Source: a candidate division KSB1 bacterium (lineage in GTDB: Bacteria; Zhuqueibacterota; JdFR-76; DREG01). Taken from it: a stretch of DNA of 49,499 nucleotides. Position 1 is the stretch's first letter. Each line of letters opens with the position of its first letter. Below are positions 33,283 to 49,234 of the stretch, piece by piece. The notes under the pieces are model-generated. The model did no database searches. It was not told the DNA's origin and was given only the letters and a program-made list of their open reading frames with translations. Both the position numbers and the translations under genes were made by a program. The DNA is taken from contig JADFJB010000017.1 of assembly GCA_022566355.1 (NCBI GenBank), positions 1-49,499 of the forward strand, written 5' to 3'.

Positions 33283-34113
33283 TCAATCGGATTTAAGTAT
33301 CGAAATGCTGCCATTGACTGTTTTCAAAACAAGGCTTCCACCGCCGCCATTGATCTGACCTTTTAATCTTCTTCTGCTAAGTTTGCCCTTAACCCTTATG
33401 GACAATTCACTATTTATACTTCCATTTACTGTGCTGGCTTCCAGATTGGCCTTTATGTCTGCCGGAATTGCTAATCGAATCCCGCCGTTAACGGTTTTAA
33501 AAATCATTTCATCGAATCGATAAATTCCTTCCAGATTTACTGATATGCTGCCATTTACCGTTTTACAAGAAACTTCGCCGCTGCTTTGAGTAATTTTGAT
33601 TCTTCCATTGGTTGTATTCGTTTCAATTTTACCTGTGATGCCGGTTATATCGATCCCGCCATTCACATTATCAATATCCAAATTTACCTCTTTAGGAACG
33701 ACTAAATAAAAATTTACATTTACTGATGGCTTGCCTCTTCCGAACAACTATGAGAACAAAGATGAGATGCCGCCATTCGAGCTTCGTTTATGGGGATAAT
33801 CAACATCTATTTCCAAATAATCTCTTCCGTCATTAATATCCAAATGAACTTCTTCCATGTATTCATCCGCAATTCGCCGGTTACGATGTTTTACAGTGAT
33901 CACTGCTCTCAGTTTAACTTGCTCATTATCCCAGGAAGTAATTTCTATCCGACCTCTGGTATTTTTTAAAGAGATTTCACCGCCTTGCCGCAGGTCGAAA
34001 GTCTGATTGATTTCTTTTCTAGCAGTTCCGGCTATAACCTGGCTTATCAGCCAAAGCAAAGAAAGAAGCCCCAGTCCTGAACCTAGTAGTAATTGTTGCC
34101 GAAGCTTTTTCAT
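33283..34113 (-). pseudogene. DUF4097-type secreted protein with in-frame TAG
   Basis: A single frame of 277 codons is broken by a TAG at 33748-33750 (ISSLFS-stop-LFGRGKPS). The codons on both sides are in the same frame, and the two halves make one DUF4097-type beta-helix protein: signal peptide (LLLGSGLGLLSLLWLIS), then RGGEISLKNTRGRIEI, and after the stop NVNGGIDITGITGKIET with regular KTVNGSIS-type repeats. One base change (for example CAG to TAG) is enough. An internal TTG follows the stop directly, so a secondary start is conceivable, but it would lack a signal peptide. TAG is a normal stop elsewhere in the window. The gene is dead or the base is an error. Confidence 0.82.
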
Positions 34114-34198
34114 GATAAATATCCTCCATCTAAAGCTAAATTTAAGAAAATATTTCTAATTTTTTGTGTGTTATCTGCCATCGACCTCAACTATAATC

Positions 34199-34852
34199 TC
34201 AATCATTCTTGTTCATCATATTCACTGGCTCATATTCAACGAAAAACTCAACCGACCTTTTTACTAATATTTCTTCTAACGTGATATTCCAAATGGCCCG
34301 GTTTTTATCACCCAGAATATTTGCATTCGTATCCGTGATCAACCCGGGAACAATCCATTGAAAGCGGAACTTGATTTTAGAAAAAAGTGAACGAAGACCT
34401 GATTTTAGAAACATTTTGGTACGATCCAGTTTGTCTTCGTCAAGGTAGATGAATCGCTTTAGTGTAATATTGTTTTCGGTCCGTACGGTTTCAAACCGTT
34501 CGTTTTAAAAGCTTGGTGTGACATTTAACAAAGCCAGGCTATCAAACTCAAACTCCATATAAACATGCGTGAGATCCTCTTTTTGACGAATCTCATGAAA
34601 CTTTTCCGTCAAGCCTCCGGAAAGATAATTTCTCTTAATATTATCTTTCACATCGTAAAGGTCCGTTGGAAAGTATAAATTTTCAAACTTCATATCCTTT
34701 TCGGCTTGATAATGTATCATCAATTCGCCTGATCCATCAACCTTCATAAATATCATCTCATCATATTCAAAACAGCCGGCATTTAAAATAGGAAAAAGCA
34801 CTAAGATTATAGAACGCCAATTTAACAAACTTATCTTCGAAGGAAATCTCAT
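34199..34852 (-). pseudogene. Predicted lipoprotein with in-frame TAA
   Basis: A 218-codon frame with a TAA at 34505-34507. It begins with a lipoprotein signal (ILVLFPILNAGC, lipidated Cys at 26), then an alpha/beta segment (YDEMIFMKVDGSGELMIHYQ, FEFDSLALLNVTPSF). After the stop the same frame continues as NERFETVRTENNITLKRF and on to IVPGLITDTNANILGDKNRAIWNITLEE. The GLITDTNANI...NRAIWNI pattern recalls the LppM/DUF3153 lipoprotein fold, a tentative match. A single AAA or GAA to TAA change would explain the stop. The start lies directly after the stop of the upstream DUF4097 gene, so translation is coupled. Confidence 0.75.
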
Positions 34853-35869
34853 TTATTGCCATTTTCGTTGAATAAAAATATCACCTATATCCGAAAAGAA
34901 TTCGCAAACCTCATTGTTCTTTTTATTCCCATTATATTCTAAAATAGAAATTCCACCTGATTTTTTGATTTCCCATTGGTGCGCTGAACGAATCACACCT
35001 AATGCTGTTTCCGCAATTATTTTTGATTCCGGAAAATCAGGCAGGATTAAAAACATATCGCCCGAATCCGACCTCACTCGAATTTTTGCTTTTAGTTTCA
35101 AATTTGGATTGAAAAAGAAATCTCCGGATTTTGTTTCAATTTCGCCTGATCTAATTTCGTTGCCAACCAGATAAATATCTGCATCTTTTGATTTTATAAC
35201 CAAACGAATGAGTTTTGAATTATCCAGGACAATTTCGCCTTGTTTAATGGATATACTCAAGTGTGGATCAACCCCATTTTGTCCATTTAGATTGGATATT
35301 TTTGTCTGGACTTCATCCAGTTTTAGTTCCAGGTTTTGAGCCAAAATGTTTGTGATTTCCAGAATTCCTTTTTTTTGTTCAATCGTAATATTACCACGGA
35401 TTCCTTCAATTATAGCGCTCCCATCCTTCTTGTCAATTTTTAATCGAATCGATTTGGGGACAGTAAGTTCAAAATCAATTTTTGTTGATGGGGTTTTCTT
35501 TATCCCTGTGAATTTGAGAAGACTGGAAAACGGATTATTACTACCTCGGCTGAGCTGATGTACGAAGAGTTTATTATTGCCCAGCGTAAATTCAATTTTG
35601 AGTTCTTTAAGTTTAGACTCTGCTTTTTCACGATTATTAGCCTTTGCCCACTTCCTTACCAAAATCTGAATAGTTGGTTTTCCCCATGTGGCTATATTCA
35701 GATTTCCGGATCCTAACCTGAGTTCCAATAGAGTATTTGGAGAAATTTCAAAGTGGTGTGTTTCGGTTTCAGTAATTTCATAATCCGAAGCAAAAAGAAA
35801 ACAAGGCAGTAAAAAGAAAAGAATTATTGCCGCTTTAATTCCTATAAATAAACCATCATTTCTACGCAT
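34853..35869 (-). CDS. DUF4097-type secreted protein
   Basis: A 338-aa protein with signal peptide (KAAIILFFLLPCFLFAS) and a long beta-helix-like domain. Ladders of short G/N/D-rich strands are visible, such as LRLGSGNLNIATWGK, DGSAIIEGIRGNITIEQKKGILEI and GEIETKSGDFFFNP. This is the DUF4097 pattern, often annotated as putative adhesin; its true function is unknown. It is intact and in a chain with a toast-rack-like protein upstream and a lipoprotein directly downstream. The family often occurs near envelope-stress regulators; no sensor or sigma factor is visible here. Confidence 0.78.
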   Translation of the reverse strand: MRRNDGLFIGIKAAIILFFLLPCFLFASDYEITETETHHFEISPNTLLELRLGSGNLNIATWGKPTIQILVRKWAKANNREKAESKLKELKIEFTLGNNKLFVHQLSRGSNNPFSSLLKFTGIKKTPSTKIDFELTVPKSIRLKIDKKDGSAIIEGIRGNITIEQKKGILEITNILAQNLELKLDEVQTKISNLNGQNGVDPHLSISIKQGEIVLDNSKLIRLVIKSKDADIYLVGNEIRSGEIETKSGDFFFNPNLKLKAKIRVRSDSGDMFLILPDFPESKIIAETALGVIRSAHQWEIKKSGGISILEYNGNKKNNEVCEFFSDIGDIFIQRKWQ

Positions 35870-35928
35870 TAAAATTCCGGATGATTAGAAAAAAATATTT
35901 ACAATGTTTATAATCAGAAAACTCGAAC

Positions 35929-36786
35929 TCATCGAATACGGATATCAAGTGTGCCAATCCCTAGAGATATTGATAATTTGGTTTTATATTTGGAGTTATC
36001 GTAATTATCCGAATAATAATATTTTCCTCTCTTATAGAAATCAGATGGGATATCCAGTGAAGAGAAAAACAGAAATTTTGAGACAGAAAATCTAATCGCT
36101 TCATTTTCAGGGAGGTACAGGCGAGTCTCACCAATATTTAAGTCAATGTCAATTTCCCGATCATTCATAATATCCATGTCGGATGTCAAATCAACAATCA
36201 AAGAGCCCACCACACCATTAATATTCGCATACTTAAAATTTGCATTGCCTAATTTTTCGATTCTTATTTCACCTAATTTAATGTCAATTTCTAATTCCTC
36301 AATTTTGTCTCTGTTTGGCTGGGAAAAAGTAACTGAAGTTTCACCGGCAAGTACGTGGAGTTCAAATTCACGGATCTTCAGTCCGCCAAGCTCAATATCA
36401 CATTGACTTGCTTTGGTTTTGCATTCGATTAATATCGGAACTTCCGTTGGTAATTTCACAATAATCCTTGCAGACAAACCATCGCCATCATCATGATCCA
36501 TAAACCATTTATCCACATCAAAATAAACTCGCAAGTAATTATCATCTTCATCAAAATCCACGCTCAATTCATGTCTATCATCATCAAACCGAAAATTGAG
36601 TGAAATCTTCCTGGCATCCCTGCTGGGTTCAATTTCTAACTTACCTGCATCGATTTCAAGCCGGATACGCAAAGGCTTTCTTCTAGAAACATCAAAACTG
36701 TATTCCTTGCGGACGATATCATCTGCAATTAAACAAGAAGGCAACAACAAATAAAGTATCCAGAGTCCTGAAATTTTATATTTCAT
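35929..36786 (-). CDS. Toast-rack/LiaF-like secreted beta protein
   Basis: A 285-aa protein with a signal peptide (KISGLWILYLLLPSCLIAD). Its beta-strand ladder resembles the toast_rack N-terminal/LiaF-like fold (RIRLEIDAGKLEIEP, FELHVLAGETSVTF, DIDLNIGETRLYLPE). It ends in a short strand array (SISLGIGTLDIRIR). In Firmicutes the LiaF C-terminal domain senses cell-wall stress. Here the protein is free in the periplasm and only the fold resemblance can be claimed. It lies between the Omp85-type barrel and the DUF4097 gene. Confidence 0.68.
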   Translation of the reverse strand: MKYKISGLWILYLLLPSCLIADDIVRKEYSFDVSRRKPLRIRLEIDAGKLEIEPSRDARKISLNFRFDDDRHELSVDFDEDDNYLRVYFDVDKWFMDHDDGDGLSARIIVKLPTEVPILIECKTKASQCDIELGGLKIREFELHVLAGETSVTFSQPNRDKIEELEIDIKLGEIRIEKLGNANFKYANINGVVGSLIVDLTSDMDIMNDREIDIDLNIGETRLYLPENEAIRFSVSKFLFFSSLDIPSDFYKRGKYYYSDNYDNSKYKTKLSISLGIGTLDIRIR

Positions 36787-36830
36787 TTTTTTCTCAGCTT
36801 TTTTAATTGATTTCTATAGAAGCTAGCTTA

Positions 36831-38084
36831 TCAGAACGGTCGGGAAATACGAAAAGTGATTTTGACAGCATCTGTTGCGCGATCTGTTCGTTTTGCGATA
36901 TTCAATCGAAATGAGCCGTCATAGTTTGCAAACGCAATACCAATATCTGAAAAGAGATCATCGACTTTCAATTTACTAAAATCTTTTTCATCCTTATACC
37001 AGGCAAGGCCGGCATCGGCGAATAGTATTAAATTAAATTCACCCAAAATCGGGATATAAGGAACCCAGTCTAAGCGGTCCCAGTCAATCTGGTATTCGAT
37101 ATTTCCCAATAACATCCGATCCCCGGTGAATGCTTTGTAATCATATCCCCTGAGAGTACTAATTCCGCCCAGATCAAATAGTTTTTGTACGGGCACGATA
37201 CCAACTGTTTCTCCGGCTCGCAATCGAATATTAATATTTTCCCCTCTCGAAATAGGCTGATAACGTCTTATTTCAAATATATAACGCTGAAAATCGGTAT
37301 CCCCTTTATATTCCCTGGTAAAATATTCTGCGGAACCTGCAAACAACCAACCTCGGCGAGAACTATACTTGCGACCCCGTGTATCCAATTGGAATTCCCC
37401 ATAAAAGCCTTTCAACTCCAGGTTATCAACAACGGGATTATCTCTGAATCTTTTATTTCCTCCGAAAACAGACCAATTCGTCACGGAATCCAGGCTCCTG
37501 TGGTTCTCTTCCAGCCAACCTATTTTTAATTTTGCCCGGCGTGAAAAATTTTGAGAAATATAAACACCCGCGCCTTCTCGGCGATAAAAATCTTGAAAAT
37601 CCTCCCGAATCAAAATGGCTCCAAGGGTGTTTTCCCAGGAAGGAATAATCCATTCATCCTCGGTATAAGTAAGATCATAAATTTCTCCGCCAATAGAAAA
37701 TTGACTGCCTGCTGGAAAAAAACTTCGCTCTAAAGTAGCTTGAAATTGAAATCGTTCACTTTTTAAACCAATACCTGCACCACCATACAATTGCATTCCC
37801 CCACGTCTTCGAAAAGTTTCTCTCTTTTTTCTGAAGCCCAAAAACACACCATCCACCCGATTATAGCGAAACACAAACCAATCGTCGTCAAAACCATTAT
37901 TACCGTTGCTGAAATAGGTCGATCCCCACTGAGATATAGGAGAGAACCTTTCCCAGGATTTATGCAATAAAGTTTGATTATTTTTATTATGTTCTCCTGA
38001 AAACAAAACAGCCGGCAATATGAGAGTAAAAAATAGTCCAAAACTAATTTTCAACAAAGGGTGCTTTAGTTTATTAGTCATCAT
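36831..38084 (-). CDS. Omp85/BamA-TamA-type outer-membrane barrel
   Basis: A 417-aa protein with signal peptide (LKISFGLFFTLILPAVLFSG) and a C-terminal beta-barrel. The Omp85 signature GGISTLRGYDYKAFTGDRMLLGNIEYQ, including the RGY substrate-lock loop, is near residues 310-340. The end ...ITFRISRPF has the terminal aromatic residue used for insertion. No POTRA domain is visible, so it is shorter than BamA or TamA and resembles the stand-alone surface-antigen-D15 type. It may export or insert the secreted proteins encoded directly downstream. It is 53 bases after rluD. Confidence 0.82.
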   Translation of the reverse strand: MMTNKLKHPLLKISFGLFFTLILPAVLFSGEHNKNNQTLLHKSWERFSPISQWGSTYFSNGNNGFDDDWFVFRYNRVDGVFLGFRKKRETFRRRGGMQLYGGAGIGLKSERFQFQATLERSFFPAGSQFSIGGEIYDLTYTEDEWIIPSWENTLGAILIREDFQDFYRREGAGVYISQNFSRRAKLKIGWLEENHRSLDSVTNWSVFGGNKRFRDNPVVDNLELKGFYGEFQLDTRGRKYSSRRGWLFAGSAEYFTREYKGDTDFQRYIFEIRRYQPISRGENINIRLRAGETVGIVPVQKLFDLGGISTLRGYDYKAFTGDRMLLGNIEYQIDWDRLDWVPYIPILGEFNLILFADAGLAWYKDEKDFSKLKVDDLFSDIGIAFANYDGSFRLNIAKRTDRATDAVKITFRISRPF

Positions 38085-38137: not shown

Positions 38138-39148
38138 TCAAAGTTTCGATGTCATCTGGGTTTCAGTAGAAATTTGTGGATCGGATACCTGGCGAGCAAG
38201 TGTTAACAATCCATCAATATCATTTGGAACCGGACTGGTATAATAAACCTTTTGTCCAGTTCTTGGATGTTCAAACCCCAAATTTTGGGCATGAAGCGCT
38301 TGTCTTCTTAAACAATTAAAATATTCTTCCGCTATTTTTCGATCGGATTTTGATAGGGCCTTAGCTCCGTTCTGTCTCCCACCATAATCATAATCTGAAA
38401 ATACAGGATGGCCAATATGTGTCATGTGCACCCTGATCTGGTGTGTTCTTCCTGTTTCTAATTTTAATTCTACAAAGCTAATTAAGGGTAACTGCTCTAA
38501 GACTTTATAGTTTGTGATCGCGGTTTTACCTTCCGACAAAACAGCCATTTTCTTACGACTATTCGGACTACGGCCAAACTTTGTTTCTATACGTCCTTCG
38601 CTTTTTTTAAACGCACCCCACAAAATGGAGATATAGCTTCTTTGTGCTGTTCTTTGTGAAAACTGTTCTGATAAATGACGGTGGGTGTAATCATCCTTAG
38701 CCACAACGAGAAGGCCAGAAGTATCCTTATCCAGGCGATGAACAATACCCGGCCGTAATTCCCCATTGATACCGGAAAGATTATCACAATGGTAGAGTAA
38801 GGCGTTCACCAAAGTTCCGTTTGAATGCCCAAACGCCGGATGCACAACCATTCCGGCTGGTTTGTTAATAATCAATAGTTGTTCATCTTCATACAAAATA
38901 TCCAAAGGAATATCTTCTTGTAGAATTTCTACTTTTCGCGGTTTGGGGATATGTATTTCAATTCGCTCCCCGGGAATGACGTTATGGCTTGGTTTGATTT
39001 TTTTGCCATTGACCAGGATTCTATTTTCTTCAAGCAATTGGTGGATTCGTGTGCGAGATATTTGATTGAATTGAGTAGCCAGAAACTTATCGATACGCTC
39101 CGGCATTACAGTTGATGATACGATGAGTTCGAGATGTTGACCAGACAT
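38138..39148 (-). CDS. rluD: 23S rRNA pseudouridine synthase, RluD-like
   Basis: A 336-aa enzyme isomerising uridine to pseudouridine in 23S rRNA (helix 69 for RluD). An N-terminal S4 RNA-binding domain (ERIDKFLATQFNQISRTRIHQLL) precedes the RluA-type catalytic domain. The motif HRLDKDTSGLLVVAK carries catalytic Asp140. LspA-RluD adjacency is a common bacterial arrangement. It starts 5 bases after lspA. Confidence 0.93.
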   Translation of the reverse strand: MSGQHLELIVSSTVMPERIDKFLATQFNQISRTRIHQLLEENRILVNGKKIKPSHNVIPGERIEIHIPKPRKVEILQEDIPLDILYEDEQLLIINKPAGMVVHPAFGHSNGTLVNALLYHCDNLSGINGELRPGIVHRLDKDTSGLLVVAKDDYTHRHLSEQFSQRTAQRSYISILWGAFKKSEGRIETKFGRSPNSRKKMAVLSEGKTAITNYKVLEQLPLISFVELKLETGRTHQIRVHMTHIGHPVFSDYDYGGRQNGAKALSKSDRKIAEEYFNCLRRQALHAQNLGFEHPRTGQKVYYTSPVPNDIDGLLTLARQVSDPQISTETQMTSKL

Positions 39149-44468: not shown

Positions 44469-44583
44469 GATCCACTCTCTTTTGGATTAAAGTTTAAGGC
44501 TTTCACTTATTTTGAAATAGCCCTGTTTGCGATGGAGTTCAACTCCTCGACGAGCTAATATTAATTTTTTCACTCGTTCATAT

Positions 44584-45966
44584 TTATATTTTCAAACTGA
44601 AGATTAAGCTTTTCCTGAAACTATTTATTTTAAGATGGTCGTTTTTGTATTCAGTTTTAGGCAGATCACGGCTGCTAGTATCATTCGGTAAAACCTTTTC
44701 GAATACAATTTTTCCATTTAAGTCATAAACCTGGAATTTAGTACTTTTAAAACTGTACAAAGTAATGATTAATTTATTCTGGCTAAGTGGTCTGTTTCAT
44801 AAATTCGGTGACGTATTTTTAAACGGAGCTATAAGCTGTAGTAATTTGTTTATCTCAATTACCCCTCCTAACCTTCCCTTATCAAGGGGAGGAATTTCCC
44901 CTCCTTGTTTAAGGAGGGGGTAGGGGAGGTTTAATAATATTGATAAGTACAATTTTAATACGTTACAGTAATTATGTTTTTATATACTAAGTAATATGTT
45001 TCTTGGCCTGTGAATCGTCCTTACATCTCCTTTTCCAACGTGGATGGGCCAATTCGGCATAATAACACCATTTTCATCATCAAATAAATAAATATAGCTT
45101 GATTTATCTCTTGCACTTTTATTGACCGATACAGCAGCCAAATACTTTCCATCCGCACTGTATGTAACCCGAAGGTCACCTTTAAATTCTGTAGGATACT
45201 CTCGCAATGGATTTCCATTACGGTCAAAAACATAGACTATACCCGCCCTTTCACCGATAGCCACTTTGTCGTTGCTAATTGCTAATTGTAAGGTACTGAG
45301 CATATTATTTTTCCGCCAGAGTTCTTTCCCTTGCGCATCTATTGCTATTAAGCCATTTTTGCTCCCAGAATAATCCTCAACCATACTATTTATTATTAAA
45401 AATCTTTTATCAGGTGATACATATGCATTTATCCCATGAACAGTGTAAGAATTGGAAAATGTATTAATAAGTTGACCCGATTTGCTATGAAGAGAAATTG
45501 GCTTATGAGAAGCTACCCTAAAAAAATAGCCCATTTCGGTTGGTATGAGGAAAAAATCTCTATCGTTGTTTTGTGAGAAAAGAAATTCGCCTTCATGATC
45601 ATAAACTCGTTTAATAAAGTTTGAACCATGCCTTGGCCTGTCCATCTCTCTTATGATCACATAATCCTTGGTGATTAGATTTACTGATTCAAGATCCTTT
45701 TTTAAATTTAGCTGGGTTCCATTGCTGAAAATAATTTTAGAGCCGGATGTTCTTTTTTCAAGAAAAGAAACTTTAGAAAACCCCAGCCGTTCGGCTTTGG
45801 CATTAAACTGTATAATTTGCTCAGGAGTTGTTTCTTCATTCACATCTAAACGTGCAATTTCCTGGAAAGACTTAGCGCTTTCCTGCTTTTGAAATCCCAG
45901 TACAACATTCAATTTTAAACTTAGCGCCATAAACAACATTACTGTCGAATTGACTTTCAAATTCAT
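44584..45966 (-). pseudogene. Beta-propeller-like secreted protein, copy 1, split by a MITE-like insertion
   Basis: The 5' part (ATG 45966) is a secreted propeller-like protein (signal region LMFTMALSLKLNVVLG-like, then EIARLDVNEETTPEQIIQF). It closely follows copy 2 to NWPIHVGKGDVRTIHRPR, then hits a stop at 44980. After a ~170-base palindromic insert, the same frame resumes at about 44790 as LSQNKLIITLYSFKSTKFQVYDLNGKIVFEK and ends at 44584, matching the C-terminus of copy 2 (ENKLIVTISNVLNRKYRVYDLTG). Insert length keeps the frame, but the insert itself contains stops. The product would lack the last ~65 residues. The repeats in the protein (AIGERAGIVYVFDRNGNPL, YSADGKYLAAVS) are WD40/PQQ-like blades. 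Confidence 0.8.
44802..44973. mobile_element. MITE-like palindromic element inside copy 1
   Basis: About 170 bases with imperfect inverted ends: aaattcggtgacgtatt at 44802-44818 and, read on the other strand, aattactgtaacgtatt from 44973. The core at about 44861-44930 is a long inverted repeat of cccctcctaaccttccctt / aaggagggggtaggggagg type, a motif common in intergenic elements of many bacteria. No coding capacity. Exact ends and any target-site duplication are not resolved by eye; ACTTAG occurs near both sides in the minus-strand reading. Confidence 0.7.
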
Positions 45967-45985
45967 GTTAGACTCATTTTATATT

Positions 45986-47170
45986 TCATTTTTTTAAATT
46001 AAAAATCCTACCTACACCAAGCTGATTTATAAACAGGTGATTGTTTTTATAGTCAATTTCAGTGACATTAGAATTGTCTAGATATCTTTTGCGAAATTTG
46101 GTTTCAAAAATAACTGACCCTGTTAGATCATAAACTCTATATTTTCTATTTAGAACATTCGATATGGTTACAATTAATTTGTTTTCTAAAATCGCAAGTC
46201 GGATTGGAGTGTAAGGATTGCTTGAATTTTCGTCATGGATATGGACAGGCCAGTTTTGTATCACAGTTCCTTGCTCATCATCAATTAGATATAAATAGCT
46301 AGACTTATCTTCTAAGCTTCTATTAGTCGATGCAGCTGCCAGGTATTTTCCATTTGAACTAAAAGTAACTGCCACATCCCCTTTAAATTTTGTCGGATAT
46401 TCTCTCAATTGATTTCCCTCACGATCAAAAACATAAACAATGCCACTTTCATGTCCTATTGCGACTTTTTTATTACTGATTGCCAATTGTCGCGTGCTTC
46501 GCAAATCGGGCTTTCGCCAGAGTTCTTTTCCAACTGAATTTATAGCAATTAATGCAGTTTGTTGACCAGAAAGATCATTAATTACGCTATTAATTATCAT
46601 ATAACTCTTGTCGGGTGAAGCATGAACCATTCGCCAATCGTTAATACTATAAGTGTTTGAAAAAGTATTGATGAGGCTGCCAAATTTATCGTAAAGAGTG
46701 ATTGGCTTACGGGAAGCCATCCTAAAAACGAAACCCAGTTCGGTTAGGACAAGACTAAAATTGCTATCATTTTGTTGAGAGAACAGGAACGTACCATTCC
46801 TGTCATATACCCTCTTGATAAATCTTGTTGGGTATTCAGGGCGATCGCGCTCGTTAACGATAACAAAATCTTTTGTTATCCTCGCGACTCTTTCGAGAGG
46901 CCAATTTAAATTTAACTGAACATCGTTACTGAAAATAATTTTGGAACTTGAAGCGTTTTTTTCAAAGTACGTGGGTTTGGCGAAGCCAAGTTCTTCGGCT
47001 TTGGCATTAAACTGCATGATTTGCTCAGGAGTTGTATTTTCATTCACATCTATGCGTGCAATTTCCTGGAAAGACTTAGCGCTTTCTTGGTTTTGAAAGC
47101 CGAATGCTACATGAAATTCAAGACACGCTATCATTAGAAAGATTAATGTCGAATTGACTTTCAAATTCAT
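45986..47170 (-). CDS. Beta-propeller-like secreted protein, copy 2 (intact)
   Basis: A 394-aa protein and the only intact member of the local family. Signal peptide (STLIFLMIACLEFHVAFGFQ), a short conserved helix segment (SAKSFQEIARIDVNENTTPEQIMQFNAKAE), then propeller-type repeats such as IGHESGIVYVFDREGNQL, VTFSSNGKYLAAAS and LYLIDDEQGTVIQNWPVHI. The last blade ends NVTEIDYKNNHLFINQLGVGRIF. It resembles WD40/PQQ-like proteins that act as binding platforms; no catalytic motif is visible. The first ~30 codons and the leader tgagtctaa before the ATG are almost identical to copy 1, so the duplication is recent. Function unknown. Confidence 0.78.
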   Translation of the reverse strand: MNLKVNSTLIFLMIACLEFHVAFGFQNQESAKSFQEIARIDVNENTTPEQIMQFNAKAEELGFAKPTYFEKNASSSKIIFSNDVQLNLNWPLERVARITKDFVIVNERDRPEYPTRFIKRVYDRNGTFLFSQQNDSNFSLVLTELGFVFRMASRKPITLYDKFGSLINTFSNTYSINDWRMVHASPDKSYMIINSVINDLSGQQTALIAINSVGKELWRKPDLRSTRQLAISNKKVAIGHESGIVYVFDREGNQLREYPTKFKGDVAVTFSSNGKYLAAASTNRSLEDKSSYLYLIDDEQGTVIQNWPVHIHDENSSNPYTPIRLAILENKLIVTISNVLNRKYRVYDLTGSVIFETKFRKRYLDNSNVTEIDYKNNHLFINQLGVGRIFNLKK

Positions 47171-47177
47171 ATTAGAC

Positions 47178-47291
47178 TCATTTCGTATTTATATTTTTTA
47201 GATGAAAAATACCACCTACACCAAGCTGATTAATAAACAGGTGATTGTTTTTGTAATCAATTTCAGTGACATTGTAATTATCAATTACATC
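47178..47291 (-). pseudogene. C-terminal stub of a further propeller copy
   Basis: This reads DVIDNYNVTEIDYKNNHL then FINQLGVGGIFHLKN and a stop. It matches the end of copy 2 (NVTEIDYKNNHLFINQLGVG) nearly residue for residue, and the DNA is also nearly identical. Nothing upstream continues the protein: similarity stops where the CCCGTAGGGA repeat cluster begins. It shows that at least four tandem copies once existed. Confidence 0.85.
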
Positions 47292-47296
47292 TTTCT

Positions 47297-47460
47297 ATCC
47301 CGTAGGGATCCAATATTTGTAGCAATTCTATTCTTTTAGTCCATTAAAGTCCCGTAGGAACGAGATATAAGATGGCAAGTGTTTTCTATTCCGTCCCTAC
47401 GGGACTTGCTATTTTTACTTGTTAGAATGGTTGCTATAAATATTTTATCCCTAATGGGAC
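47297..47460. repeat. Cluster of CCCGTAGGGA-type palindromes
   Basis: Four variants in ~165 bases: ATCCCGTAGGGAT (47297-47309), AGTCCCGTAGGAAC (47348-47361), CCGTCCCTACGGGAC (47391-47405) and ATCCCTAATGGGAC (47447-47460). Spacers share phrases such as tttgtagcaattct / gttgctataaatatt. A single related unit lies at 11157-11170. Irregular spacing and sequence divergence rule out a CRISPR array. The cluster abuts the broken end of the propeller stub. Confidence 0.75.
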
Positions 47461-47567
47461 TGTTAACTGAATTCTGTTAATTCTTTAAACTATCTGCTTC
47501 CTTTCAATTTTAACTATCAAGCCAAGAAACGATAGAAATACTTATACATTTTTGCGATGAACCATTA

Positions 47568-48729
47568 TTAATTCTTTTCTTTTATACTTTTGGGAAATTT
47601 ATACAACAGCCCATTACTAACGCCCAGAACTTGAAAAGAGACACCCTTGATGTATATATTCTCAACATTCACATGATCATATGAATTTATTGACATTGGA
47701 AGTTCCAAAAGCAGTTTCCCTGAAAAATTATATACTCTATAAATTCTAGTTGATATAAAATCAAAAGTTACACATACCAAATTGTTGATAATAGATATTT
47801 CCACTGGCGTCCCCTTCTTGCTTTTTCGGCTATCAAAGAAGATAGGCCAATTTTCCATCAATTTTACTTTAGCATCATCAAATAGATATACATAACTTTC
47901 TCTATATGGTCGTTCACTTGTTTTTAATGAGGTTGAAATTACTGCAAGGTATCTTCCATCCTCGCTAAATGTCACTGCCCCATATCCGGAAAAACTAACC
48001 GGATAGGATCTGAGTTCTTCACCTGAACGATTGAAAACAAAAACACTACTCCCCCACGGATTAATTGCCACTTTATCATTACTAATACCAAGTTGTCTTT
48101 GACTTCCTAATCCAGCAATGCGTCAAAGCTCATTTCCGTGTGCTCCAAAAGCAATTAGTGCACGATTTCTATTACGGTTATGACCATTTCTTGAAACAGC
48201 TTCTTTTACCCTTGCACTAATCACAAAAAAACTTCTATCAGGGGAGGTATCGACTTTACTAAAGTTATAGAGACCATGAGGACCGTCTCTAAAAATTTGC
48301 TTTATAAAAAGTCCCGCTTCGGTTGGATAAAGATATTTTGCTTTCGTTGAAAACAACTTTTCACCCTTTATATTATAGACTTGTTGTTCAATTAAAGTTG
48401 GGTAACGCGGATGGTTTGTATCTCGTATAACTATGTAATCTTGAGAAAATTTATGTACTCCTTGCAATTTGTTTTTTCAAAAACAATTCTTTACCATTAG
48501 CAAAAATTATCTTCTCACATTCTTCACTGCGCAGTAGAAATTGTCCTTTCGGAGCGCCAAGTTCGCCAGCCGGTTTGTTGAATTTTATAATATCTGCTGT
48601 GGTAGAATTTTGATCTACTTTCACAACAATGTATTCCTTGTGTGTTTGGAGGAGATTTTGTGCGAGACTGGGTCTTGGTATTAAAAAAAGAAATGATAGA
48701 ATTAAAAAAGATTTGATGTTTTTATTCAT
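47568..48729 (-). pseudogene. Beta-propeller-like secreted protein, copy 3, frameshifted and with TGG-to-TGA
   Basis: The ATG at 48729 starts a signal peptide (KSFLILSFLFLIPRPSLAQ) and the family N-terminus to KELFLKKQ. One extra base near 48468-48475 (A-rich run) then shifts the frame; dropping it gives LQGVHKFSQDYIVIRD, which aligns with LERVARITKDFVIVNE of copy 2. At 48123 an in-frame TGA replaces the conserved Trp of KELWRK (here NEL-stop-RIAGLGSQRQLGISNDK). The last third (47568-48071) is open and ends with the family C-terminus. About 20 residues are also missing near TEAGLFIKQ. It is more diverged than copies 1 and 2, so it decayed earlier or came from an older duplication. Confidence 0.82.
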
Positions 48730-48970
48730 ATTAATTCCTTTGGATTTAAAACCGTTGAAACGGTTCTAATTTATTGTTTTTTATCATTAGTTCAATATCC
48801 ATTCTTCATTTACTGCGAAAATGTTAATGAGACACAAAACAGAGTAAATATTCTTAATTTCATTTTACAAACATCTACTCGCCGATCTTTGGCGCTTTGA
48901 TATTTCTCCATAACGGCGCAAAGCTCGCTCTTATTTCTCCTTTTATCCGTCTTACGGCCTAATATTCATT
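48730..48970. other. Intergenic spacer with repeat-like tract
   Basis: No gene. The low end may hold the copy 3 promoter. At about 48890-48965 lies another T/C-rich tract (tttggcgctttgatatttctcc, ttatccgtcttacggcctaa) like those at 5.2, 22.8 and 44.3 kb. Confidence 0.5.
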
Positions 48971-49234
48971 TCATTCTTTCTTTTTATTCTTTTCTCTTTC
49001 TAACATTTTTTTGCGGAATTTCTCACGCCCTTTCAATAATAATTCTTCTTGACGCTTGTATTTTTCTAATAGAGCAATTTCTTCTTCGCTTAATTCGTCT
49101 TTGTTTAATAGTTCAATCTTTGGATGAATAATGTAAATACTAATCAAACGACGTACCGGATCTTTTATCTGTTTAAAAATATGTGTTGCCCACAAATCTC
49201 TTCGTTCAACATAGTTTTTAGAGGTCAAATGCAA
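48971..49234 (-). CDS. Hypothetical protein, Lys/Glu-rich C-terminus
   Basis: An 87-codon frame from a TTG at 49234, not recognised. The N-terminal half reads HLTSKNYVERRDLWATHIFKQ and KDPVRRLISIYIIHPKIELL; the end is a charged helix (KYKRQEELLLKGREKFRKK). It overlaps the stop of the right-edge frame by 10 bases and opens only shortly before its TTG. It could be a translationally coupled gene or, equally, the shifted C-terminal half of the upstream gene. Confidence 0.4.
   Translation of the reverse strand: MHLTSKNYVERRDLWATHIFKQIKDPVRRLISIYIIHPKIELLNKDELSEEEIALLEKYKRQEELLLKGREKFRKKMLEREKNKKKE

What the first reader, a model, noticed from the sequence alone, without database searches (positions are those of the whole stretch)
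33283..38084. Omp85-type barrel with toast-rack, two DUF4097 proteins and a lipoprotein
Five consecutive same-strand genes, closely spaced, encode a POTRA-less Omp85 barrel and four exported beta-ladder or lipoprotein products. DUF4097 and LiaF/toast-rack folds recur together in envelope-stress loci, but the combination with an Omp85 barrel suggests a surface assembly or export unit with no described function.
Basis: partly seen in the sequence, partly recalled or inferred. Interest (0 to 1): 0.58.

Follow-up and report, generated by a model that had tools for sequence, protein, structure and literature searches.

The report
Outer-membrane barrel with exported toast-rack partners
A small outer-membrane barrel protein is encoded next to three exported ladder-shaped proteins and a lipid-anchored protein, and this grouping is kept across a whole bacterial phylum, so it is very probably a working cell-envelope unit, although what it does is not yet known.

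Summary
The window carries, on the minus strand, a 417-aa Omp85 barrel without POTRA domains, an exported LiaF_C/toast-rack protein, an exported DUF4097 protein, a lipoprotein and a second exported DUF4097 protein. The last two are each interrupted by one in-frame stop; close relatives have undivided copies. The arrangement is not chance: of 60 relatives whose barrel locus I read, 48 had at least 3 kb downstream, and 41 of those 48 carry a same-strand toast-rack gene within 8 kb; 0 of 20 loci of a paralogous barrel do. Upstream neighbours differ between lineages; some lineages split the unit or lost the barrel. The barrel model has 16 strands and matches BamA and TamA. The lipoprotein model matches LppM of Mycobacterium, reported to bind a phospholipid. 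Many relatives have a bactofilin-like solenoid where POTRA domains would sit. Best reading: an Omp85 machine whose periplasmic arm is made of separate beta-solenoid proteins, for outer-membrane assembly or lipid upkeep. The unit is well supported; the mechanism is inference. An envelope-stress sensor is the main rival. Surface export is not supported.

The parts
36831..38084 (-). 417-aa outer-membrane 16-stranded Omp85 barrel, signal peptide, disordered 29-66, no POTRA
   Evidence: Pfam Omp85 2e-11; AF2 pLDDT 83.2 with 16 strands; Foldseek best BamA 4c4v 5.9e-13
35929..36786 (-). 285-aa exported toast-rack protein, LiaF-like_C
   Evidence: PF09922 5.6e-10; N-terminal hydrophobic stretch in 50 of 53 family members, no further TM-like stretch in 53 of 53
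34853..35869 (-). 338-aa exported DUF4097 toast-rack protein (type a)
   Evidence: PF13349 2.3e-13
34199..34852 (-). lipoprotein gene with LppM-like fold, interrupted by an in-frame TAA at 34505-34507
   Evidence: relatives undivided; fold match of the L078 homologue to LppM
33283..34113 (-). exported DUF4097 toast-rack gene (type b), interrupted by an in-frame TAG at 33748-33750
   Evidence: relatives undivided
38138..39148 (-). rluD-type pseudouridine synthase, upstream neighbour (housekeeping context, not part of the unit)
   Evidence: PF00849 1.6e-32; directly upstream of the barrel in 39 of 139 barrel loci held, duplicates included

Best explanation
It is a conserved cell-envelope unit built round a POTRA-less Omp85 barrel. 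The barrel sits in the outer membrane; three exported toast-rack proteins and a lipoprotein of LppM-like fold work on its periplasmic side. I think it most likely that the toast-rack solenoids do what POTRA domains do in BamA and TamA: they form the periplasmic arm that offers edge strands or a surface to clients or partners, and the lipoprotein contributes lipid binding. The whole would then assemble or maintain outer-membrane components through the barrel's seam. Shown: the parts, their conservation as a unit, the predicted folds and the export-type N termini. Inferred: physical contact between the parts, replacement of POTRA domains, and any insertase or lipid-handling activity.
For: 41 of 48 relatives with enough downstream sequence have a same-strand toast-rack gene within 8 kb of the barrel, against 0 of 20 paralogous-barrel loci, 14 of which had 3 kb downstream. 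By independent Pfam positions, long-frame LiaF_C genes lie within 8 kb of a barrel in 29 of 49 cases, and the short-frame type in 2 of 51. Upstream context changes by lineage: ileS-dksA-lspA-rluD in some, NtrC regulator-HflX-BatA in others (HflX and BatA named by eye). The 16-strand model is closest to BamA and TamA; D357, G359 and F417 are invariant in 36 sequences. In relatives the POTRA position holds a bactofilin-like solenoid, over Pfam's cut-off in 2 of 8 scanned (L083, L111) and below it in 5 more. In L070 a separate 224-aa bactofilin-like exported protein lies between barrel and toast-rack. The lipoprotein model matches LppM (E 8.4e-9, Z 10.3).
Against: No contact or activity was tested. 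In family f16 the quartet LIAF-D4097a-LIPO-D4097b stays together away from the barrel (L184; partly L180, L185), and in L181, L182 and L195 rluD is followed directly by LIAF with the barrel gone, so the toast-racks do something without a linked barrel. The window's own lipoprotein and second DUF4097 gene carry stops. No protein fuses barrel and toast-rack. Barrels of Ignavibacteria-labelled loci lack toast-rack neighbours. DUF4097-type genes elsewhere in this genome follow ECF sigma factors, which favours the sensor rival.
Confidence: 0.4

Rival explanations
1. Envelope-stress sensing unit, a Gram-negative counterpart of Lia/PSP: the barrel reports the state of the outer membrane and exported toast-racks pass it inward to a membrane partner (LiaF-TM-like or GPDPase_memb-like) and a regulator.
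For: In this genome two other DUF4097-type loci start with an ECF sigma gene (L219, L220; in L220 the next gene has zf-HC2, in L219 the 208-aa second gene had no Pfam match). Among the 80 named loci, ECF plus anti-sigma homologues co-occur in 8, Ignavibacteria-type barrel loci. LiaF-TM-like (4) and GPDPase_memb-like (16) membrane proteins recur among the 48 usable loci.
Against: No sigma factor or two-component pair is in the window's unit; the NtrC regulator upstream in some lineages sits among unrelated genes; the 8 ECF loci lack toast-racks.
Confidence: 0.28
2. Passive envelope scaffold: the barrel is only an outer-membrane anchor and the solenoids (toast-rack or bactofilin) form a periplasmic lattice that supports the outer membrane.
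For: Fused bactofilin-like domains, a family named for polymer formation; toast-racks proposed as interaction surfaces (PMC11237479, passages).
Against: A 16-strand Omp85 barrel with its conserved inward loop and FxDxG positions is more than an anchor needs.
Confidence: 0.15
3. Surface display or export unit: the barrel moves the toast-rack proteins to the cell surface, as adhesins.
For: FhaC-type Omp85 proteins secrete solenoid proteins (recalled); a DUF2807 protein acts as an adhesin in P. gingivalis (PMC10949514, passages).
Against: FhaC-type secretion uses POTRA domains and large clients (recalled); here there is no POTRA and the toast-racks are mostly 260-390 aa. The ShlB Pfam model scores below its cut-off in relatives.
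Confidence: 0.12
4. Chance arrangement of unrelated genes.
For: The unit is split or partial in some lineages.
Against: 41 of 48 against 0 of 20; 29 of 49 against 2 of 51.
Confidence: 0.02

Closest known systems
BamA / TamA (Omp85 superfamily)
   Same: 16-strand barrel; BamA and TamA are the best fold matches; C-terminal Phe and FxDxG region
   Different: No POTRA; BamA equivalog score 32.7 against a cut-off of 297; the linked partners are toast-racks, not BamB-E or TamB
'noNterm' Omp85 subfamily (Heinz and Lithgow 2014, PMC4104836, passages seen)
   Same: Barrel without N-terminal domain, function unknown, proposed membrane-protein biogenesis
   Different: In relatives this barrel class mostly has a bactofilin-like N terminus; the word bactofilin does not occur in that paper; toast-rack partners were not in the passages seen
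LiaF/LiaG and the PSP/Lia toast-rack systems (Ravi et al. 2024, PMC11237479, passages seen)
   Same: Same toast-rack domain (PF09922, PF13349)
   Different: That paper predicts Toastrack to be intracellular; here the three proteins have export-type N termini and almost no further TM-like segment and are linked to an outer-membrane barrel
LppM (Rv2171) lipoprotein domain, PDB 2nc8
   Same: Fold of the lipoprotein homologue, Foldseek E 8.4e-9, Z 10.3
   Different: 11% identity; no Pfam match at E<=1 for P0004; lipid binding is reported for LppM (PMC6151718, passage), not tested here

Membership tests
Omp85 superfamily | Omp85 barrel domain above curated cut-off | tested here: met
   44.4 bits against 24
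Omp85 superfamily | 16-stranded barrel with inward loop | tested here: met
   16 long strands counted in the DSSP string of the model, loop 303-321; predicted, not solved
Omp85 superfamily | C-terminal aromatic residue; FxDxG region (motifs recalled) | tested here: met
   F417, D357, G359 invariant in 36 rows; C-terminal F in 117 of 130. The loop Arg R312 is at 90% or more in 20 rows but is not in that list for the 36-row set
BamA/TamA orthologue | POTRA domains | tested here: not met
   none by Pfam or in the model
BamA orthologue | NCBIfam equivalog cut-off | tested here: not met
   TIGR03303 32.7 against 297
Toast-rack (DUF4097 / LiaF_C) | Pfam cut-off | tested here: met
   P0003 50.6, P0005 33.0 against 22.9; P0002 39.6 against 29
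LiaF/LiaG proper | NCBIfam cut-offs; TM segments before the toast-rack (TM feature and recall) | tested here: not met
   LiaF_C_term 38.9 against 57, LiaG at most 33.3 against 285; no TM-like stretch after residue 75 in 53 of 53 LIAF
PSP system | PspA linked or present | not tested
   no PspA search was run
LppM family | LppM fold | tested here: met
   on the intact L078 homologue; predicted model
LppM family | sequence-level membership | tested here: inconclusive
   no Pfam match for P0004 at E<=1; PDB sequence search gave no LppM at E<=1

The most novel reading that the evidence does not exclude
Another way of building an Omp85 machine: the POTRA arm is replaced by beta-solenoids, fused as a bactofilin-like domain in most relatives and supplied as separate exported toast-rack proteins (plus a lipid-binding lipoprotein) in this one, giving an outer-membrane assembly or lipid-upkeep complex of the Calditrichota/KSB1 radiation and its neighbours.
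Probability: 0.3. Interest if true: 0.75.

Novelty: new variant of a known kind. Interest (0 to 1): 0.5.

Why it matters
POTRA domains are the textbook working arm of Omp85 proteins. A phylum-wide unit that keeps the barrel but pairs it with beta-solenoids would show another way to run such a barrel. It would also put toast-rack proteins, predicted in print to be intracellular (PMC11237479, passage), in the periplasm of Gram-negative bacteria. The unit is defined clearly enough to be tested directly by deletion or pull-down in a cultivable relative.

Tried and rejected
Chance arrangement: rejected by the counts. Recoding (stop codons read as sense): not favoured, because two different stops (TAA, TAG) are involved and the unit's other genes use normal stops; I did not search for suppressor tRNAs. 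Old pseudogenes: not favoured. The window branch is not long for the lipoprotein (0.18 against 0.32 for L077) and is moderately longer for DUF4097b (0.34 against 0.26), less than the excess seen for the intact rluD (0.28 against 0.18); in both genes most differences fall at codon position 3. So the stops are recent mutations or assembly errors; I cannot tell which without reads.

A first genome-contig scan with the single barrel found nothing; the alignment scan worked. PDB sequence searches with the lipoprotein and DUF4097b alignments gave nothing useful. Promoter and terminator scans were at the shuffled expectation and are not used. A greedy gene caller hid some genes on loci such as L085 and L196 behind overlapping ORFs; the first count (39 of 48) was replaced by a six-frame count (41 of 48). 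The profiles used were built from 41 loci (the window and 40 relatives), most of them counted again there, so that count is partly circular; one search uses Pfam positions and is independent of those profiles. I did not test co-evolution of the barrel with its partners. VIA-align was run for the lipoprotein model only.

Full report
What is there. On the minus strand, downstream of ileS-dksA/traR-lspA-rluD and upstream of parA, lie five gene frames (ileS and parA named by eye): barrel 36831-38084, LiaF_C/toast-rack 35929-36786, DUF4097a 34853-35869, lipoprotein 34199-34852 and DUF4097b 33283-34113. Pfam supports four of them. The lipoprotein has no Pfam match; NCBIfam gives a sub-threshold match to LIC11874_lipo (20.1 against 250). 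The Cys after its signal peptide is invariant in 5 of 5 intact relatives, although the window's own lipobox is weak at position -3.

A correction. The lipoprotein and DUF4097b frames each contain one in-frame stop. In the two relatives of the same family read here (L037, L038) both genes are undivided, and at each stop the other three aligned rows have a sense residue. L037 and L038 also have a 153-aa lipoprotein gene between the two that the window lacks. Codon-position patterns and branch lengths show no long-standing loss of constraint. I read this as either recent decay of the distal half of the unit or assembly error. The barrel, LIAF and DUF4097a frames are intact.

Is the arrangement real? 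The barrel class is found at phylum scale: 92 of the 99 genomes searched (own genome included) have some match, 68 a close one by my hand list. I read loci for 60 of these 68. Of the 60, 48 had at least 3 kb downstream; of those 48, LIAF is linked in 39, DUF4097a in 21, DUF4097b in 13, the lipoprotein in 8, GPDPase_memb-like in 16, c11 in 12, and any toast-rack in 41. Twenty loci of a paralogous barrel of about 400 aa, 14 of them with at least 3 kb downstream, gave 0 of 20. Using Pfam LiaF_C positions alone, 29 of 49 long-frame genes lie within 8 kb of a barrel, against 2 of 51 short-frame ones. Among the 80 named loci, 63 had at least 3 kb downstream and 31 of those 63 have a toast-rack; the rest are mostly Ignavibacteria- or Bacteroidetes-labelled records. 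One Gemmatimonadota record (L131) has DUF4097a directly upstream of the barrel. These names place the window near KSB1/Calditrichota; its own record is not named.

Exceptions, told in full. In family f16 the barrel has no linked toast-rack downstream in the loci read, but LIAF, DUF4097a, lipoprotein and DUF4097b form their own cluster elsewhere (L184), with partial versions in L177, L179 and L180, and about 10 kb from the barrel in G035 (L185). In G062, G052 and G038 rluD is followed directly by LIAF, as if the barrel had been removed (L181, L182, L195). Some unlinked cases lie at contig edges (L199, L200). Ignavibacteria-type loci carry an M14 peptidase and, in 8 of the 80 named loci, ECF sigma plus anti-sigma homologues instead.

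Folds. The barrel model (36 sequences, mean pLDDT 83.2, pTM 0.77) has 16 strands and a loop at 303-321; residues 29-66 are below pLDDT 50. The best PDB matches are BamA (5.9e-13) with TamA close behind (6.0e-12). By profile the best PDB sequence match is 9ccg (2.2e-9), which Foldseek lists as Fusobacterium nucleatum BamA. Most relatives are longer: of 130 distinct barrels, 78 have 480-620 aa and 13 more than 620 (this set includes paralogue loci). Their N-terminal part is bactofilin-like: over cut-off in 2 of 8 scanned, sub-threshold in 5, not reported in 1. The lipoprotein model (L078 homologue, 5 sequences, pLDDT 82.1) matches LppM; a review passage says LppM can bind phosphatidyl-myo-inositol mannoside (PMC6151718).

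Export. A simple hydrophobicity rule, not SignalP, finds an N-terminal hydrophobic stretch in 50 of 53 LIAF, 29 of 29 DUF4097b (1 short dropped), 25 of 27 DUF4097a and 10 of 10 lipoproteins (1 short dropped). It finds no further TM-like stretch in LIAF, DUF4097b or the lipoprotein, and one in 2 of 27 DUF4097a. Ravi et al. [quoted passage not shown] this group is at odds with that.

How it may work. Omp85 proteins act through a barrel seam helped by a periplasmic arm (established for BamA and TamA; recalled). Here the arm is not POTRA. In relatives a solenoid occupies that place in the same chain; in the window's clade solenoids are encoded beside the barrel. I therefore favour partner-supplied solenoid arms serving outer-membrane assembly or lipid upkeep. 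No contact, client or activity was shown. The sensor reading is kept as a strong rival because DUF4097-type genes elsewhere in this genome follow ECF sigma factors (L219, L220).

Novelty. Searches for toastrack/DUF4097/LiaF with Omp85, Omp85 with POTRA-less/noNterm/bactofilin, bactofilin with Omp85, DUF families with BamA and DUF4097 with outer membrane protein gave no description of this combination in the held open-access library, which lacks most subscription papers. The components are known kinds; the combination is, as far as these searches go, new.

Noticed in passing
window 44500-49000: A family of mutually similar ORFs (328, 394, 167, 114 and 92 aa), some undivided and some broken; looks like tandem paralogues in decay.
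   Followed up: partly
L045:7775-10066, L083:5825-8116, L111:5681-8095: Omp85 barrel fused to an N-terminal bactofilin-like solenoid, over the Pfam cut-off; no paper holding both words was found.
   Followed up: partly
L045:5017-6753, L154:8183-9967: Exported repeat protein of about 570 aa (c11) without any Pfam match, recurring beside the barrel (12 of 48 loci).
   Followed up: no
L157-L176: A paralogous barrel of about 400 aa lies next to a second, weaker Omp85-like barrel gene in 19 of 20 loci (my reading; L171 lacks it).
   Followed up: no
L219:1772-4637, L220:382-3493: Other DUF4097-type genes of the same genome lie behind ECF sigma genes; a further one lies among ABC/MacB export genes (L217).
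   Followed up: partly
L103, L114, L116, L117, L118, L125, L136, L140: Ignavibacteria-type barrel loci carry M14 peptidase, ECF sigma and anti-sigma homologues.
   Followed up: partly
L181, L182, L195: rluD followed directly by LIAF with the barrel absent, as after a clean loss.
   Followed up: partly
window 33735-33760: Type-b DUF4097 proteins share a hydrophobic SWLFG-like loop (pattern found in 17 of 30); possibly membrane-contacting. The window's stop falls in it.
   Followed up: no
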